A stretch of DNA of 64,000 nt. Origin: Corynebacterium hylobatis (GTDB taxonomy: Bacteria; Actinomycetota; Actinomycetes; Mycobacteriales; Mycobacteriaceae). Both the position numbers and the translations under genes were made by a program. Shown piece after piece: positions 19,858-33,226 of the stretch. The notes beneath the pieces are model-generated. The model saw nothing but the letters and a program-made list of their open reading frames with translations, was not told the DNA's origin and did no database searches. How positions within the stretch are numbered: the stretch's first letter is position 1; each line of letters begins with the position of its first letter. The stretch lies in the NCBI RefSeq assembly GCF_003955685.1, contig NZ_RXHJ01000008.1, positions 62,001 to 126,000 of the forward strand, given 5' to 3'.

Positions 19858-22800
19858 GGCCTGTCCCCGCCTGCGCGGGGAGAACTCGATGTTTCGGTGG
19901 GTGGTGCCGATCATGTAGGGGCCATCCCCGCCTGCGCGGGGAGAACCGCGCACCCCGGGTAACTGGTTGATGATCAGCGGACCATCCCCGCCTGCGCGGG
20001 GAGAACAACGAGGACACCTTCCTCATCGACAACACCACCGGACCATCCCCGCCTGCGCGGGGAGAACAGTGAGTTCCACCGCGTCATCAGGGGTGATGTG
20101 GGACCATCCCCGCCTGCGCGGGGAGAACGAGCCGTCACCCCGAAGTCGGTGGAGAAGATCGGGACCATCCCCGCCTGCGCGGGGAGAACGCACCCCATTT
20201 GATGGAGAACTCGGTTTCCCAGGGACCATCCCCGCCTGCGCGGGGAGAATGTGCTTCGGCCACGGTCATCATGCGGTCACTCAGGACCATCCCCGCCTGC
20301 GCGGGGAGAACCCAGGAAAGTTAGGGGCCGGTCATGGGGAAGGCGGACCATCCCCGCCTGCGCGGGGAGAACTTCACGAAGCCCCCACTGTCCGCGAACC
20401 AAAGGGGACCATCCCCGCCTGCGCGGGGAGAACCACAGCTCCGTCATCGAGTCAAAGATCAGCAGGGGACCATCCCCGCCTGCGCGGGGAGAACTAGCCG
20501 CTGCACTCAAAATGCGGTGTTTGCGGGGGACCATCCCCGCCTGCGCGGGGAGAACGTGGTGCGTCGCTGATGATGACGGCGCAGGCGGGGACCATCCCCG
20601 CCTGCGCGGGGAGAACTCGATGGCGTTGATGCCCCAGTCTTCGATCTCGGGACCATCCCCGCCTGCGCGGGGAGAACTTTTAGGAGTCATAGCTACCATT
20701 CCAGCTTTCAGGACCATCCCCGCCTGCGCGGGGAGAACGTGGTGACAGCACCGAACCCAGCGGATGCCTGGGGACCATCCCCGCCTGCGCGGGGAGAACC
20801 GTGGAAGGTGCTGGCAGATCACCCCGGAGAAGGGACCATCCCCGCCTGCGCGGGGAGAACGATCTTCGTCGGGGTGAGCCACAAGTTCTTTGCGGACCAT
20901 CCCCGCCTGCGCGGGGAGAACATTGTCCGCAGAAGATCCGCCACGGAGAAGTCGGGACCATCCCCGCCTGCGCGGGGAGAACGTTCCCCGGTTCATGGGG
21001 ACGGTCATGCACACGGGACCATCCCCGCCTGCGCGGGGAGAACGCTGATGGCTCGTTCTACTACGGCTACAAGACCGGACCATCCCCGCCTGCGCGGGGA
21101 GAACCTCCTCTCCTAGAACTGCAGGGCTGCAACACGAGGACCATCCCCGCCTGCGCGGGGAGAACCGTGTCGTCACACTCCGCGGCCGACTCCAACAGGG
21201 ACCATCCCCGCCTGCGCGGGGAGAACTCGCCTGGGTAATTCCCGGCGCGATCTTGGAAGGGACCATCCCCGCCTGCGCGGGGAGAACCGATGACGATGAC
21301 GACGACCCCAGCGCCCCCGGTGGACCATCCCCGCCTGCGCGGGGAGAACACCTCGTCAACATTCTCAGGCTGTCCGTTCTCGGGACCATCCCCGCCTGCG
21401 CGGGGAGAACGTCAGGCCGAAGGAGAAGCACTTCTGCGAGTTGGGACCATCCCCGCCTGCGCGGGGAGAACGGGACAGTCCAGGCCCTTAGAGGTCAGGG
21501 ACCGGGACCATCCCCGCCTGCGCGGGGAGAACACCTTCACACCGGTGCCGACAAGGGTCACGCCGGGACCATCCCCGCCTGCGCGGGGAGAACTGCCCTA
21601 CAATGGCTAACATCACTGACGAGCAGGGACCATCCCCGCCTGCGCGGGGAGAACGAGGCCCGTGCACGGCAGCAGTTGGAAGATGAGGGACCATCCCCGC
21701 CTGCGCGGGGAGAACATCGGGGTTGACAAAACCGAGCCGTACGCCAAGGGACCATCCCCGCCTGCGCGGGGAGAACTCAACGAGAACTACGACCTCCTGG
21801 CTGAAGCCGGGACCATCCCCGCCTGCGCGGGGAGAACAAGTAGTGGACCCCCTCGGAGTAGACGGTTCCGGGACCATCCCCGCCTGCGCGGGGAGAACTT
21901 GATGATGACCTTCGCGACGTGCGTCTTACCGGGACCATCCCCGCCTGCGCGGGGAGAACTCGGTCGACTTCGGAGGCTGCAGGGGGAAGGTGGGACCATC
22001 CCCGCCTGCGCGGGGAGAACCGGGTGTAGGAGGTGTTGTAGCAGGAGGTGCAGGGACCATCCCCGCCTGCGCGGGGAGAACGCCTGGCCAGTAGAGGAGT
22101 ATGCCTCGGAGAAGGGACCATCCCCGCCTGCGCGGGGAGAACTGGTGATCGTGGCCGATACAGCAAGGCTCCGGGGGACCATCCCCGCCTGCGCGGGGAG
22201 AACAGGCCGTATCACGGAAGATTCTGGGGCGCAACCTGGACCATCCCCGCCTGCGCGGGGAGAACCGGCCTCTGGCTCGCCCTCTTCCTCGGGATGTGGG
22301 ACCATCCCCGCCTGCGCGGGGAGAACGAGATTGCCCTCGCCCTGGGGGTTGACCCGAGGGGACCATCCCCGCCTGCGCGGGGAGAACTTCGATTCGAGAA
22401 CGTTTTGCCACGGCTCCTCCGGACCATCCCCGCCTGCGCGGGGAGAACGCAAGGTCCGGGGCGGCGGCAGCGAGACGCACGGGACCATCCCCGCCTGCGC
22501 GGGGAGAACGAGGCCCCGCATTCAAAATGCGGTAGTTCTCGGGGACCATCCCCGCCTGCGCGGGGAGAACTTTGGAGTCAGCGGCGGGCATCGAGGACGT
22601 CACGGACCATCCCCGCCTGCGCGGGGAGAACGGTCCCCCACCCACTCGGTGGAATCAATGACCCGGACCATCCCCGCCTGCGCGGGGAGAACATCATCGC
22701 CGTCATCGGCGTCGCCATCCACCGCGGACCATCCCCGCCTGCGCGGGGAGAACCAGGCCGAGCATATCGAACGGCTACAGGCAGCGGGACCATCCCCGCC

Positions 22801-23058
22801 TGCGCGGGGAGAACTGGAGGACGACAACGACGCTGCCCTGGCGACCGGGACCATCCCCGCCTGCGCGGGGAGAACCTGGTCCTGCACGACCATCTGGACG
22901 GACTTGCCGGACCATCCCCGCCTGCGCGGGGAGAACCGGGAGGTCAGCGGGGAGAGCACATCCGAGACCGGACCATCCCCGCCTGCGCGGGGAGAACAAG
23001 TCCTGGTAGCGGGTGGTCTTCTGCCACTCGGGACCATCCCCGCCTGCGCGGGGAGAAC
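19858..23058 (-). CRISPR. Type I-E CRISPR array, 53 repeats, 52 spacers
   Basis: A 28-bp repeat that reads GGACCATCCCCGCC on the plus strand, continuing TGCGCGGGGAGAAC, recurs every 61 bp from 19858 to 23031. Exceptions are one 60-bp and two 62-bp units (at 21260 and 22176). By homology with known I-E repeats the crRNA strand is the minus strand (starts GTTCTCCCCGCG, ends GATGGTCC). Repeats at 19858 and 19919 differ from consensus by three and one bases, marking the old (trailer) end; the repeat at 20223 ends in T instead of C. The new end at 23058 faces cas2. On the crRNA strand, the base after each repeat is C 36, G 11, T 3 and A 2 times, which suggests a PAM-derived position. Confidence 0.98.
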
Positions 23059-29281: not shown

Positions 29282-32050
29282 TCACTCCTTCTCCTTCCTT
29301 TCCACCAGCAGGCCCAACTGTTCGTCATAGCGGAATACATAACGCTCCACCTCCCTCGATAAGGTTTCGTCCAGGACCAGCGGCAGCATGCCTTTGAGCC
29401 AACGGGATTGCTGCCAGGACTCCTGCCCGTCGGACTCAAGATCCCCGAGGTCATCGTCGCTGAGCGTCCAGCCCGGGAGCCGGACGGTACAGCGCGCGAG
29501 GTTTCTGGCAACGGAATAGTCGAGTTCCATGGTGCCGTCGACGGGCATACCGTCGAGTTCCCGCACGTGAGGTAGTGCGTAGAGTCTGCCGTTGACATTG
29601 CGTACCACGATGACCTCGAAGGACTCATCGGCGTCGCGGACCTGTCCGGCAGCTGCCTGCTCATCGGCAATCGACGGCTGTCTGCTCCACCCCGCCAGAT
29701 CCTCTGATTCCGGTTTCGGGATGCGGGCAAGCTCAGCGCGTTTGATCTGACTCTTTTCAAAGTCCATTTCATTTCTGTGCGCCTGCGCCCACTGCTCCAC
29801 CCACCCGGCTGGCGCAGCGCGTTCAGTGTCGTAGCTGACAGAAACGAGCTTCTCGACGTCCACCGGTGTGGTTATCCGCCCATAGGATTCCTGGAGATGG
29901 TCTGCCAGAACACTCAGGGACCGCAGGAGAGGTGCGCTGCGGTAGACCCTGACACTGCCTTTCTGCATCGATGGTGCCGGCCCTGTGGTGTCCGGGATCC
30001 CGGCACCGAAGATCGACAAGGTCGGCTTCTTCAAGGTTTCAGGACGGAGTTCATTTAGCACTGGGTGACGGTGGAGCCGCCCGATGCGCTGAATAATCAG
30101 GTCAGTGGGGGCGATGTCACTGATCATGGCGTCGAAATCCAGATCCAGGCCCTGCTCGATAATCTGGGTTGAGACCACGATCAGCTTTTTTGGGCGTGCA
30201 TCGCCAGCCTGGCGTCCAAGCTGGTGGACCAACGACCCTTCGAGATCAACCCGGTCCGAGGTGAGGAACCGCGCATGAAGTAGCACCGTCGCATCCTCCT
30301 GTGCAGAGATGAGACAGTACAGCTCCTGGGCCCGGCTGACGGTGGAGCAGATGATTCCGATACAACCACCGTCAGTAGACAGATCGAGGGCTTTGGCCGC
30401 CATCTCTGGCAGGTCGCCTTCTGAGAATATGACGTGGGTGGTGCGGTTGAGACCGTCGTGTTCCGGCGCGATGGTTTCGGTGGTGTGTCCGTCAGTCCAG
30501 GTGATACGAGGATAGACGGGGGAATCATCCAGTTTCGAGCCGGTTCCGTCATAGCCGGAAGCGCCACTGTAGTAGGCGTCGAGAAGCTCTTTGCGCATAG
30601 CTGGCGGCAGCGTCGCAGACAATGCGATCACCGGTACCCCGTACAGCCCCAACCACTCAAGCAGGCAAGTGGTGTAGACACGCATATAGGAATCGGCAGC
30701 ATGGATCTCATCAATGATGACGACCTTTCCCGCCAACCCCAGGTGACGCAGGACGTTGTGACGGGATTGGAGCGTAGCGAAGAGGATCTGATCGATGGTG
30801 CCTACCACCACAGAGGCCAGCAGTCCCGTCTTCCGACCCTGAAACCACTGGGTGGCCTCCAGTTGCGTCTGATCGGCTGGCACGTCGTCATCGTGGATGG
30901 ACGAGAAACCCGATGACGTCACTTCCCGGAACTCATCATTGAACTCGGACTTGCCGTGGGCGAGCACCGTGGACACAGATTCCGGCGAACCGGACTGCGA
31001 CAGCCACTGCGCCACTCTGCTGAAGATGGCATCCGATGTCACGCGGGTAGGCTGGGCGAAAAACAGACCGTTGAAACCGAACTTCGATGCGGTGATATCA
31101 GCCAGCGCCAGGGCCGCTTCTGTCTTCCCCGAACCGGTCTCATTCTCAATGATGGTGAACGACGGTCTGGTCTGCGCATTGCCCACCTCGATGACCGCCT
31201 GCTGCACATTACGCAACGCCGCCGATTTCGGCAGGGCAAAACGGGAGATGAACTCAGCACTGTCCACCGGAGACGGTTGCCACCGCCCACCGAGGTTGAT
31301 TCGAACCCTGGCATTGTCGAGTCGCTCCCCAGGATCCTGATACTGTCCGCTGATGAGAGGGAAATTCTCCGTCGAAGAGGCCACCCAGTCCGCAGCGATC
31401 AGGACACCAGTGGTCAGCGCCGCGACGGCATTCGGAATGATCTTGTCGTCGGCATCATTGAAGAGCGTGGCACAGCGTTGAATATCTTCCTCGCTGAGAC
31501 CGGCATCCCCGATCAGAACATCCAGCAGCTCAAATCGAGCCTCCTGCCACTGGGACGAGCGGCGCATCTCCTGGGCAAGATCATCCGAGGGCGACTTGAA
31601 AGGATTGAAGGTTCCATGGTGGCCAGCGATGACAGCGAACCAGAACTCCTTGGTTATCGGATCCAGTCGGTTCCCGGTGCGCTGCCCCAACCATGCAATC
31701 AGGGTGTGGGCGCTGATGATGGAATGCGGGTTGGCGGACATCTGGTTCGGCGTGACCGCACCGTCGAATCCGGCTGCGGCGACCCGCATGGAAAGCGTCG
31801 GATTCTTCTGCTGGAAGAACGGACTCGCCTTTCCGATGTCGTGAGCGCAAGCCGCAAGCTTCAGCACCACGTCCATCGGTACTTCCCCCATCATGTCAGA
31901 GAGAAACTTCCTGGTGGCTGGAGCGAGAAGGGAATCAGAGACATTCGTGATGATCCCGCTGATATCAAGGCTGTGTTGCAGCAGTGATAGATACTCCGAG
32001 GCACTGTAGTCAGAGGTTTTCGCCCAGAAGAGATTGAGATGCTTCGTCAT
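29282..32050 (-). CDS. cas3: CRISPR nuclease-helicase Cas3
   Basis: The 922-residue protein has an N-terminal HD nuclease (CAHDIGKASPFF, His-Asp at 70-71) and a superfamily 2 helicase with ETGSGKTEAAL (Walker A) and VIIDEIHAADSY (motif II). It degrades DNA after Cascade binding. It is the first gene of the cas operon; a core promoter sits just upstream (32063-32090). Only six to seven bases separate the predicted transcript start from the ATG. Confidence 0.96.
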   Translation of the reverse strand: MTKHLNLFWAKTSDYSASEYLSLLQHSLDISGIITNVSDSLLAPATRKFLSDMMGEVPMDVVLKLAACAHDIGKASPFFQQKNPTLSMRVAAAGFDGAVTPNQMSANPHSIISAHTLIAWLGQRTGNRLDPITKEFWFAVIAGHHGTFNPFKSPSDDLAQEMRRSSQWQEARFELLDVLIGDAGLSEEDIQRCATLFNDADDKIIPNAVAALTTGVLIAADWVASSTENFPLISGQYQDPGERLDNARVRINLGGRWQPSPVDSAEFISRFALPKSAALRNVQQAVIEVGNAQTRPSFTIIENETGSGKTEAALALADITASKFGFNGLFFAQPTRVTSDAIFSRVAQWLSQSGSPESVSTVLAHGKSEFNDEFREVTSSGFSSIHDDDVPADQTQLEATQWFQGRKTGLLASVVVGTIDQILFATLQSRHNVLRHLGLAGKVVIIDEIHAADSYMRVYTTCLLEWLGLYGVPVIALSATLPPAMRKELLDAYYSGASGYDGTGSKLDDSPVYPRITWTDGHTTETIAPEHDGLNRTTHVIFSEGDLPEMAAKALDLSTDGGCIGIICSTVSRAQELYCLISAQEDATVLLHARFLTSDRVDLEGSLVHQLGRQAGDARPKKLIVVSTQIIEQGLDLDFDAMISDIAPTDLIIQRIGRLHRHPVLNELRPETLKKPTLSIFGAGIPDTTGPAPSMQKGSVRVYRSAPLLRSLSVLADHLQESYGRITTPVDVEKLVSVSYDTERAAPAGWVEQWAQAHRNEMDFEKSQIKRAELARIPKPESEDLAGWSRQPSIADEQAAAGQVRDADESFEVIVVRNVNGRLYALPHVRELDGMPVDGTMELDYSVARNLARCTVRLPGWTLSDDDLGDLESDGQESWQQSRWLKGMLPLVLDETLSREVERYVFRYDEQLGLLVERKEKE

Positions 32051-32062
32051 GTTCCGCTCTTA

Positions 32063-32090
32063 TTTATAACAATAAACGTCTTAAGCACAA
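32063..32090 (-). promoter_or_regulatory. Core promoter of the cas operon
   Basis: On the minus strand, TTGTGC (32085-32090) and TATAAA (32063-32068) are 16 bp apart and stand 12 bp before the cas3 ATG. No other promoter-like element is seen before casA, so this probably drives all eight cas genes. Confidence 0.65.
32068..32085 (+). promoter_or_regulatory. Putative Cascade autorepression site in the cas3 promoter
   Basis: On the plus strand, AAC (32068-32070) is followed by AATAAACGTCTTA (32071-32083). The pseudo-spacer upstream gives the guide AATAATCGTCTGA: 11 of 13 bases agree and the two mismatches are positions 6 and 12, the bases that Cas7e flips out. The site lies between the -10 and -35 boxes, so bound Cascade would block RNA polymerase. 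The short match should be too weak for Cas3 cutting (inference from known seed rules). Confidence 0.65.
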
Positions 32091-32248
32091 CCTGATGGTA
32101 GCTGACATTCTTTCCTTGTGTAGGAAATCTTCCCAGCGGGGGTACACACGGTCGACACCCGTGCCAGATTGTCGAATGCGAAGATCCCTATAGGAAGAGC
32201 ACAGAACCCCTGCCCAACCGAAAATAAATTCGATTAAACAAGGGTACT

Positions 32249-32276
32249 GGATAGCCCCGCTGACTGCGGGGAGCAG
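32249..32276 (-). repeat. Degenerate CRISPR repeat 1 (downstream copy)
   Basis: Keeps TCTCCCCGC-like 5' arm (CTGCTCCCCGC) and the GCGGGG 3' arm with a five-base loop instead of four; the end reads CTATCC. Confidence 0.75.
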
Positions 32277-32297
32277 GATCATCTCAGACGATTATTC

Positions 32298-32326
32298 GGA
32301 TCATCCCCACGAGGATGGGGAGCCAG
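32298..32326 (-). repeat. Degenerate CRISPR repeat 2 (upstream copy)
   Basis: Its last 11 bases differ from the array repeat at one position, so the 5' handle of a derived crRNA would be almost normal. The stem is changed on both sides yet still pairs. Confidence 0.78.
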
Positions 32327-32341
32327 AAATGATCGACTCAC

Positions 32342-32370
32342 AGTCTACGGAGGGCCTGGCCGATTTTCAC
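32342..32370 (-). promoter_or_regulatory. Predicted promoter of the crRNA-like RNA
   Basis: GTGAAA and TAGACT with a 17-bp gap on the minus strand; TAGACT is the same -10 type seen before other genes in this window. Confidence 0.5.
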
Positions 32371-32422
32371 CAGCCCCTGCCCGCGCGACACAAAAAGAGC
32401 GACGTCGATTAGCCTTGACCCC

Positions 32423-33226
32423 ATGACTCTTCCCTCCCCCAGCCCGCAGGCTCATGCGCTCGTCACGGGCGCCAGCCAGGGCATCGGCATGGCCATGGCG
32501 CGTGATCTCGCGTCGATGGGCCACAATCTCATCATCGTCGCCCGGCGCGAGAATGTTCTCCGGGATTTCGCCGCGGAGCTTGAGTCCGCGCATGGTGTGG
32601 ACGTCGAGGTCTTCGCGGCTGATCTGAGCAGGCACGAGGACGTCGACCGCCTCATCGCGCACATGGCGGATCGTGAGATCTCCATCCTGATCAACTCGGC
32701 TGGCATCGCCACGTTCGGGCCGCTGGTCAGGCAGGACTGGGACCATGAGATGGCCCAGTTCAACCTCAATGCCACTGCCGTCTTCCGGCTCACGCGCGCG
32801 GTGCTGGACGGGATGCTGGAGCGGAAGTCGGGGGCGATCTGCAACGTGGGTTCCGCAGCGGGCAACGTGCCGATCCCGAACAACGCCACCTACGTGTTCA
32901 CCAAGGCGGGGGTCAACGCCTTCACCGAGGCCCTGCACTACGAGCTGAAGGGCACCGGTGTGACCTGCACGCTGCTGGCGCCGGGTCCGGTGCGTGATGC
33001 GGTGGTTCCGGATGCGGAGAAGTCGATCGTCGATAAGGTCGTCCCTGATTTCCTGTGGACCACCTACGAGTCCTGCTCCCGCGAGACGCTTGAGGCGATG
33101 GCGAAGAACCAGCGTCGCGTGGTGCCGGGTCCGCTGAGCAAGGCGATGAATGCCGTGTCCAAGATTGCACCGACGGGGCTGCTCGCGCCGGTGATCGGTA
33201 AGTTCTATTCGAAGATGGGTGACTAG
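32423..33226 (+). CDS. cmrA: Mycolate reductase CmrA-like SDR
   Basis: The 267-residue short-chain dehydrogenase has GASQGIG (about 15-21), NSAG and YVFTK (catalytic Tyr-Lys) motifs. Length, the C-terminal APTGLLAPVIGKFYSK segment and the following orn gene match C. glutamicum cmrA and M. tuberculosis Rv2509, which reduce the beta-keto intermediate in mycolic acid synthesis. TAGCCT lies seven bases before the ATG, so the mRNA is probably leaderless. The cas locus ends just upstream. Confidence 0.85.
   Translation: MTLPSPSPQAHALVTGASQGIGMAMARDLASMGHNLIIVARRENVLRDFAAELESAHGVDVEVFAADLSRHEDVDRLIAHMADREISILINSAGIATFGPLVRQDWDHEMAQFNLNATAVFRLTRAVLDGMLERKSGAICNVGSAAGNVPIPNNATYVFTKAGVNAFTEALHYELKGTGVTCTLLAPGPVRDAVVPDAEKSIVDKVVPDFLWTTYESCSRETLEAMAKNQRRVVPGPLSKAMNAVSKIAPTGLLAPVIGKFYSKMGD

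What the first reader, a model, noticed from the sequence alone, without database searches (positions are those of the whole stretch)
32063..32370. CreR-like crRNA-like RNA predicted to make Cascade repress its own cas operon
Upstream of cas3, on the same strand, two degenerate CRISPR repeats (32249-32276 and 32298-32326) flank a 21-nt pseudo-spacer instead of the 33 nt in the array. Taking the usual 29-nt repeat register, the guide begins AATAATCGTCTGA. The cas3 promoter contains AATAAACGTCTTA at 32071-32083: 11 of 13 bases match and the only mismatches are positions 6 and 12, exactly the guide bases that Cas7e flips out. The target is preceded by 5'-AAC, a plausible I-E PAM, and lies between the -10 (TATAAA) and -35 (TTGTGC) boxes. 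The pseudo-array has its own promoter-like boxes, placing the start nine bases before the first pseudo-repeat. Ten fixed matches in about 400 possible sites would occur by chance at well below 1 in 1,000 for equal base use. CreR/CreA RNAs are known from archaea and some bacteria; I know of no described case in Corynebacterium, but could not search.
Basis: partly seen in the sequence, partly recalled or inferred. Interest (0 to 1): 0.96.

Follow-up and report, generated by a model that had tools for sequence, protein, structure and literature searches.

The report
Mini-CRISPR RNA likely silencing cas genes
Next to its cas3 gene this bacterium (likely a Corynebacterium) carries a tiny, decayed CRISPR unit whose guide matches the DNA just upstream of cas3, and 66 of 93 cas3 loci examined in its genus carry such a unit; it is predicted to make the CRISPR machinery turn down its own production, a known kind of control.

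Summary
Two degenerate I-E repeats flank a 21-nt pseudo-spacer whose guide matches a site upstream of cas3 (11 of 13, mismatches only at 6 and 12, PAM AAC), the only such site in the 3.07-Mb genome. The decisive evidence is comparative. Of 93 cas3 loci of the genus, 66 hold such a mini-array. In 62 of 66 the own guide finds an AAN-flanked site with at least 9 of 10 seed matches; foreign guides do so in 9 of 3804 trials, shuffled guides in 15 of 6600. Mismatches pile up at guide positions 6 and 12, the bases that Cas7 flips out, and guide and target change together. In five loci the site lies before casA instead. Pseudo-spacers are 20-22 or 32-33 nt, none between. This is a CreR-type RNA, a kind already reported for I-B, I-E and V-A (review passage): a new, genus-wide member with unusually clear evolutionary support. 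Expression, processing and repression are untested.

The parts
32298..32325 (-). pseudo-repeat 1: degenerate I-E repeat with hairpin and 5' handle (ATGATCC, base 29 = G at 32297)
   Evidence: 18 of 28 identical to the array repeat, 6 of 6 stem pairs, 6 of 7 handle bases; only match to the hairpin+handle pattern outside the array in the genome
32277..32297 (-). 21-nt pseudo-spacer (base 29 plus 20-nt guide); guide seed AATAATCGTCT at 32286-32296
   Evidence: sequence; 21 nt is the commonest length in the genus, 38 of 66
32249..32276 (-). pseudo-repeat 2 (CCCCGC-AGTCA-GCGGGG hairpin)
   Evidence: sequence; fold of 32240-32336, z-score -2.8
32071..32083 (+). target protospacer, PAM-proximal 13 bases (a 20-nt guide would reach 32090)
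   Evidence: 11 of 13 matches, mismatches at 6 and 12; unique in the genome
32068..32070 (+). PAM AAC
   Evidence: sequence; AAN at 51 of 51 genus targets scored without using the PAM
32063..32068 (-). likely cas3 -10 box TATAAA, overlapping the PAM
   Evidence: by eye; not found by the consensus scan
32085..32090 (-). possible cas3 -35 box TTGTGC, 16 nt from the -10
   Evidence: by eye; not found by the consensus scan
29282..32050 (-). cas3, first gene behind the target promoter
   Evidence: ORF, NCBIfam TIGR01587 and TIGR01596
23103..29248 (-). casA, casB, casC, casD, casE, cas1, cas2; casA starts 33 nt behind cas3
   Evidence: NCBIfam, ORFs, gap
19979..23058 (-). canonical CRISPR array, 50 exact 28-nt repeats

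Best explanation
The degenerate mini-array is predicted to be transcribed and cut by Cas6e into a crRNA-like guide RNA (a CreR) that would load into Cascade and bind the likely cas3 promoter at an AAC PAM through about 11-13 bases, blocking RNA polymerase and so turning down cas3 and the cas genes behind it. Shown: the sequence, the match, its uniqueness in the genome, the AAN PAM and the co-variation across the genus. Pairing that ends after 11-16 bases should allow binding without Cas3 attack on the chromosome. When ordinary crRNAs compete for Cascade, or an anti-CRISPR disables it, repression should lift; this step is taken from the CreR literature and untested here.
For: Unique target and unique stray repeat in the genome. 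66 of 93 cas3 loci of the genus have a mini-array found without looking at the target (the window added by hand). Own guides reach >=9/10 at AAN sites in 62 of 66, foreign 9 of 3804, shuffled 15 of 6600. PAM AAN at 51 of 51 sites scored without it. Mismatches in 56 distinct pairs: position 6 in 38, position 12 in 43, the ten other positions of 1-11 in 18 of 560, as expected from a review's account of Cas7 (passages). In 21 pairs with cas3 at least 60% identical, 47 of 53 seed changes in the guide are matched in the target, against 1 of 17 at positions 6/12 and 4 of 60 at 17-28. Five apparent exceptions target the stretch before casA. CreA is said to repress by an 11-bp seed match (passage).
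Against: No transcript, processing or repression data. No consensus promoter or terminator in 32000-32480. 27 of 93 loci had no accepted mini-array (one, L093, gave a candidate later), so it is dispensable. First-repeat stems next to the handle are only 2-3 pairs long in 11 of 66 loci, so Cas6e cutting there is doubtful. Short spacers alone need not stop cleavage in I-E: a reference title in PMC10989794 says that E. [quoted passage not shown] The targets used for the co-variation count were themselves picked by seed match, so part of the seed agreement is built in; the controls measure how little chance adds.
Confidence: 0.88

Rival explanations
1. A decayed leftover of a CRISPR array whose spacer resembles the cas3 upstream region by chance.
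For: The repeats are degenerate and 27 of 93 loci had no accepted mini-array.
Against: Chance match 1 in 20,000 for the window alone, unique site in the genome, 62 of 66 loci of the genus match their own promoter region, co-variation.
Confidence: 0.02
2. The small RNA acts as an ordinary antisense RNA on the cas3 mRNA leader, without Cascade.
For: In the window the guide is complementary to the cas3 sense strand, so pairing with a longer leader is conceivable.
Against: In 57 of 66 loci the target is on the cas sense strand, so the guide equals the mRNA and cannot pair with it. The AAN PAM and the freedom at positions 6 and 12 have no meaning for RNA-RNA pairing.
Confidence: 0.03
3. A CreA-type antitoxin guide that holds down a toxin gene (CreTA) rather than cas genes.
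For: CreA RNAs have the same build: degenerate repeats and an 11-bp seed match (passages).
Against: The target ends about 20 nt upstream of the cas3 start, with no gene between, and in relatives it is upstream of cas3 or casA.
Confidence: 0.02
4. Cascade binds the site but activates or insulates the promoter, or uses it for priming, instead of repressing.
For: In many loci with plus-strand targets the site looks to lie upstream of the likely -35 (by eye). Shortened-spacer I-E Cascade is said to be capable of primed adaptation (reference title).
Against: Minus-strand targets, the window's included, sit beside a -10-like box (by eye). In the I-B system of Haloarcula hispanica 24-bp spacers repress while interference and priming are lost (abstract). 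Reviews describe CreRs as repressors.
Confidence: 0.05

Closest known systems
CreR (cas-regulating, crRNA-like RNA; Liu et al. 2023, not held, known here through review passages)
   Same: crRNA-like RNA beside the cas genes; partial match to the cas promoter; no toxin gene; reported for I-B, I-E and V-A
   Different: Here followed across a genus: guide and target co-vary in dozens of loci, the target is before casA in five of them, and pseudo-spacer lengths fall into two classes 12 nt apart. Whether the 2023 paper already covers Corynebacterium could not be checked.
CreA of CreTA / CrePA modules
   Same: degenerate mini-array; Cascade guided by a short seed match (11 bp for CreA, passage)
   Different: CreA represses a toxin gene; here the only gene behind the target is cas3, or casA in five relatives
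Natural long tracrRNA that makes Cas9 repress its own promoter (type II; recalled, and one sentence on Cas9 auto-repression)
   Same: an effector guided to its own promoter by a natural RNA with limited pairing
   Different: type II, different RNA and effector; not homologous
Racrs, phage RNA anti-CRISPRs that mimic repeats (PMC10651486, abstract start in listing)
   Same: solitary repeat-like units outside arrays
   Different: phage-encoded inhibitors; this unit is chromosomal and has a guide for the cas promoter region

Membership tests
CreR | degenerate mini-array near the cas genes that could yield a crRNA-like RNA | tested here: met
   window; 66 of 93 loci
CreR | guide partly complementary to the promoter region of a cas operon, beside a PAM | tested here: met
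   the promoter itself is predicted by eye only
CreR | RNA is made and processed by Cas6 | not testable with these tools
   needs small-RNA sequencing; stem length before the handle varies
CreR | loads into Cascade and represses cas transcription | not testable with these tools
   only indirect: PAM and position 6/12 pattern
CreR | not coupled to a toxin gene | tested here: met
   no gene between target and cas3
CreTA | the target promoter drives a toxin | tested here: not met
   target lies about 20 nt upstream of the cas3 start
Canonical CRISPR array | matching repeats with 33-nt spacers | tested here: not met
   first repeat 18 of 28 identical to the array repeat and a 21-nt spacer; array spacers are 33 nt in 3680 counted cases, next commonest 34 in 149

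The most novel reading that the evidence does not exclude
Most Corynebacterium I-E systems build two sizes of Cascade from one gene set: a full complex that destroys invaders, and a repressor complex two Cas7 subunits shorter (33 minus 12 = 21-nt spacer) that reads only about 11-13 bases and works as a self-sensing thermostat. Its guide and target drift together, so each species owns a private key, and the lock can move from the cas3 to the casA promoter.
Probability: 0.45. Interest if true: 0.75.

Novelty: new member of a known kind. Interest (0 to 1): 0.62.

Why it matters
It turns a one-locus prediction into a natural experiment: 56 distinct guide/target pairs show, from evolution alone, which bases a type I-E Cascade seems to need to control a gene (1-5 and 7-11 kept, fading by 16; 6 and 12 free) and which PAM it uses in this genus (mostly AAC). 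If the repression is real, cas expression in a genus with industrial and medical species is set by a small RNA that would monitor crRNA load and anti-CRISPRs, and the short guides show how the native Cascade could be used for gene silencing.

Tried and rejected
A cas3 scan of genome contigs with the single protein found no relative. Phage matches to the array, wanted as an independent PAM test, were absent; plasmid hits (114 records, 103 Streptomyces) look like repeat matches to other arrays and were not followed. Diversifying selection on the guide was considered after seeing L115/L117 and dropped: over 11 close pairs (one further pair skipped for different architecture) the guide seed differs at 12 of 110 positions, like the intergenic DNA around it (243 of 2195). 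Phage-borne copies of three guide patterns: 0, 1 and 0 hits, the one hit inside an ORF without a repeat beside it. Rfam gave nothing for 31900-32700. Dropped before counting: detector hits in L035 (24-nt gap) and L093 (18-nt gap), judged spurious; L093 gave another candidate in a looser scan and is not in the 66. The window was added to the 66 by hand because its second hairpin has a 5-nt loop that the detector's rule excludes. The casA region was added to the target search only after the whole-locus scan; the nulls include it. That scan covered the 5 exceptions, L078, L081 and two controls, not all 66 loci. Three further 9/10 AAN sites turned up in it, away from casA (one in L044, two in L049), and none for L078 and L081.

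Full report
What is there. The window holds a type I-E cas set on the minus strand (cas3, casA-E, cas1, cas2; NCBIfam) followed by an array whose 28-nt repeat reads GTTCTCCCCGCGCAGGCGGGGATGGTCC. cas3 starts at 32050 and casA begins 33 nt behind cas3. Between cas3 and the divergent mycolate-reductase gene (32423) lie two repeat-like hairpins, 21 nt apart, on the cas3 strand. The organism is taken to be a Corynebacterium because several relatives of its Cas3 bear that name; the genome itself is unnamed.

The match. In the usual register (8-nt handle, guide from base 30) the guide AATAATCGTCTGA matches AATAAACGTCTTA at 32071-32083 with mismatches at 6 and 12 only, next to AAC. In the genome held (3.07 Mb, 45 contigs) AAN-AATAANCGTCT occurs once, here, and the hairpin+handle pattern occurs once outside the array, here. 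Of 20,000 shuffled guides one did as well.

Genus-wide test. A protein search found cas3 in 93 of 242 genomes of the genus, and all 93 loci were read (window, L005, L032-L122; some are cut by contig ends). A detector that knows repeat and handle but not the target reported 67 loci. I dropped two (L035, L093) and added the window by hand (5-nt loop), giving 66. Scoring an unbroken run of matches with positions 6 and 12 skipped and no PAM asked for, 51 of 66 guides reach 8 or more near cas3; foreign guides do so in 42 of 4126 pairs, shuffled guides in 29 of 3300, reversed guides in 0 of 66. The PAM, not used, is AAN at all 51 (AAC 42, AAT 5, AAG 3, AAA 1). With AAN required and the stretch before casA included, 62 of 66 reach 9/10 or 10/10 and the other 4 reach 8/10; foreign guides reach 9/10 or more in 9 of 3804, shuffled ones in 15 of 6600. 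At 8/10 or more the figures for foreign and shuffled guides are 104 of 3804 and 247 of 6600, so the 4 weakest loci prove nothing singly.

Fingerprint of Cascade. Targets chosen near cas3 with the first 14 positions weighted equally (at least 10 of 14, AA at the PAM; 59 of 66 loci, 56 distinct pairs) show mismatches at position 6 in 38, at 12 in 43, and at the ten other positions of 1-11 in 18 of 560; they rise from 13 to 16 and look random from 17 on. A review states that Cas7 flips out crRNA bases 6, 12, 18, 24 and 30 and that the seed is 1-5 and 7-8 (PMC5965380, passages). I considered no other model that explains this pattern.

Co-variation. Pairing each locus with its nearest unused relative by cas3 gives 33 pairs. 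Of 123 seed positions that differ between the guides, 111 differ in the targets too with pairing kept, against 1 of 35 at positions 6/12 and 8 of 150 at 17-28. For the 21 pairs with cas3 at least 60% identical the figures are 47 of 53, 1 of 17 and 4 of 60. Targets had been picked by seed match, so some of the seed agreement is built in; the nulls show that chance adds little. The window against its closest relatives L032 and L033: 4 of 4 and 3 of 3 differing seed positions are matched. The guide seeds fall into 29 clusters. Seeds change about as fast as the intergenic DNA around them in close pairs (12 of 110 against 243 of 2195), so there is no sign of faster than background change.

Retargeting. 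Five loci (L041, L044, L047, L048, L049) have a good mini-array upstream of cas3 but no site there. A scan of their 16.5-kb loci gave sites between the cas3 stop and casA: 10 of 10 matches four times and 9 of 10 once (L041), PAM AAC four times and AAT once; three further 9/10 sites lie elsewhere in L044 and L049. The guide may follow the promoter that matters, although gaps of that size between cas3 and casA also occur in loci that target cas3.

Geometry. In 14 of 66 loci the mini-array is on the cas3 strand, in 52 on the other. Targets are on the minus strand relative to cas in 9 loci, the window included, with the PAM close to a -10-like box (GT-TATAAA in the window), and on the plus strand in 57, often at or upstream of a -35-like TTG (boxes judged by eye, not scored). 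In those 57 the guide equals the sense strand, which excludes antisense pairing with the cas mRNA.

Lengths and ends. Pseudo-spacers measure 20 (3), 21 (38), 22 (2), 32 (12) and 33 nt (11), none from 23 to 31 although the detector allowed 18-37; the two dropped hits measured 24 and 18. Array spacers in the same count are 33 nt. That the 12-nt step equals two Cas7 subunits is inferred from the six-base period. In H. hispanica I-B, 24-bp spacers repress while interference and priming vanish (PMC10989794, abstract); in a I-F1 system truncated R-loops form but are not cleaved, while the same abstract calls I-E less restricted (PMC7296934), and a cited title says that shortened-spacer E. coli Cascade is capable of interference and priming. 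In I-E it is therefore the short pairing, more than the short spacer, that should protect the chromosome. Terminator-like hairpins lie at or just behind the second repeat in 36 of 66 mini-arrays against 28 of 660 random windows; in 28 the second repeat itself is the hairpin, which the detector had asked for, so only the T-run is new information there. The window's own is weak. Stems of at least 6 pairs end right before the handle in 32 of 66 first repeats against 280 of 3300 shuffles, but 11 of 66 have only 2-3 pairs.

Beyond the genus. Of 46 genomes of the order outside the genus with a cas3 match, 26 loci were read, with a generic repeat and 1.5 kb upstream only; 2 show the same arrangement with AAC (L125 10/10, L138 9/10).

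Mechanism and status. The most likely reading is a CreR: Cas6e makes a crRNA-like RNA, Cascade takes it to the cas3 promoter, the short pairing allows binding but not Cas3 attack, and the cas operon is held down until crRNAs or an anti-CRISPR draw Cascade away. Sequence, uniqueness, PAM, fingerprint and co-variation are shown; transcription, processing, binding, repression and release are inferred. CreRs are already reported for I-B, I-E and V-A (passage), so this is a new, unusually well evidenced member. Liu et al. 2023 is not held. Among the listed results of searches I saw none that describes a CreR in Corynebacterium, and the term CreR does not occur in the text of an actinomycete CRISPR review (PMC12231136); this speaks for this library only.

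Noticed in passing
window 32423-33226 (+): The gene divergent from the cas operon is a mycolate reductase (NF040690); the 372-nt gap to cas3 holds the mini-array.
   Followed up: no
L115 and L117, upstream of cas3: cas3 is 99% identical over the part compared and the pseudo-repeats are nearly identical, yet 5 of 10 guide seed positions differ and the target has changed with them.
   Followed up: partly
L049, 299 to 189 nt upstream of cas3: Three pseudo-repeats; the second and third are followed by guides with no >=9/10 AAN site in the 16.5-kb locus.
   Followed up: partly
L057, L060, L061, L067, L071, L074, L082, L083, L086, L090, L093, L103, L111, L112, upstream of cas3: In these 14 loci a canonical array lies upstream of cas3 on the opposite strand, beyond the mini-array where there is one.
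   Followed up: no
L042 (genome G005), cas3: cas3 reads through one TGA and the target has an AAT PAM and a mismatch at position 9, unlike its relatives L043 and L045: possible decay together.
   Followed up: no
arrays of 83 loci of the genus: The base after the 28-nt repeat is mostly C in 69 arrays and mostly G in 13, hinting at two PAM preferences (AAC, AAG).
   Followed up: no
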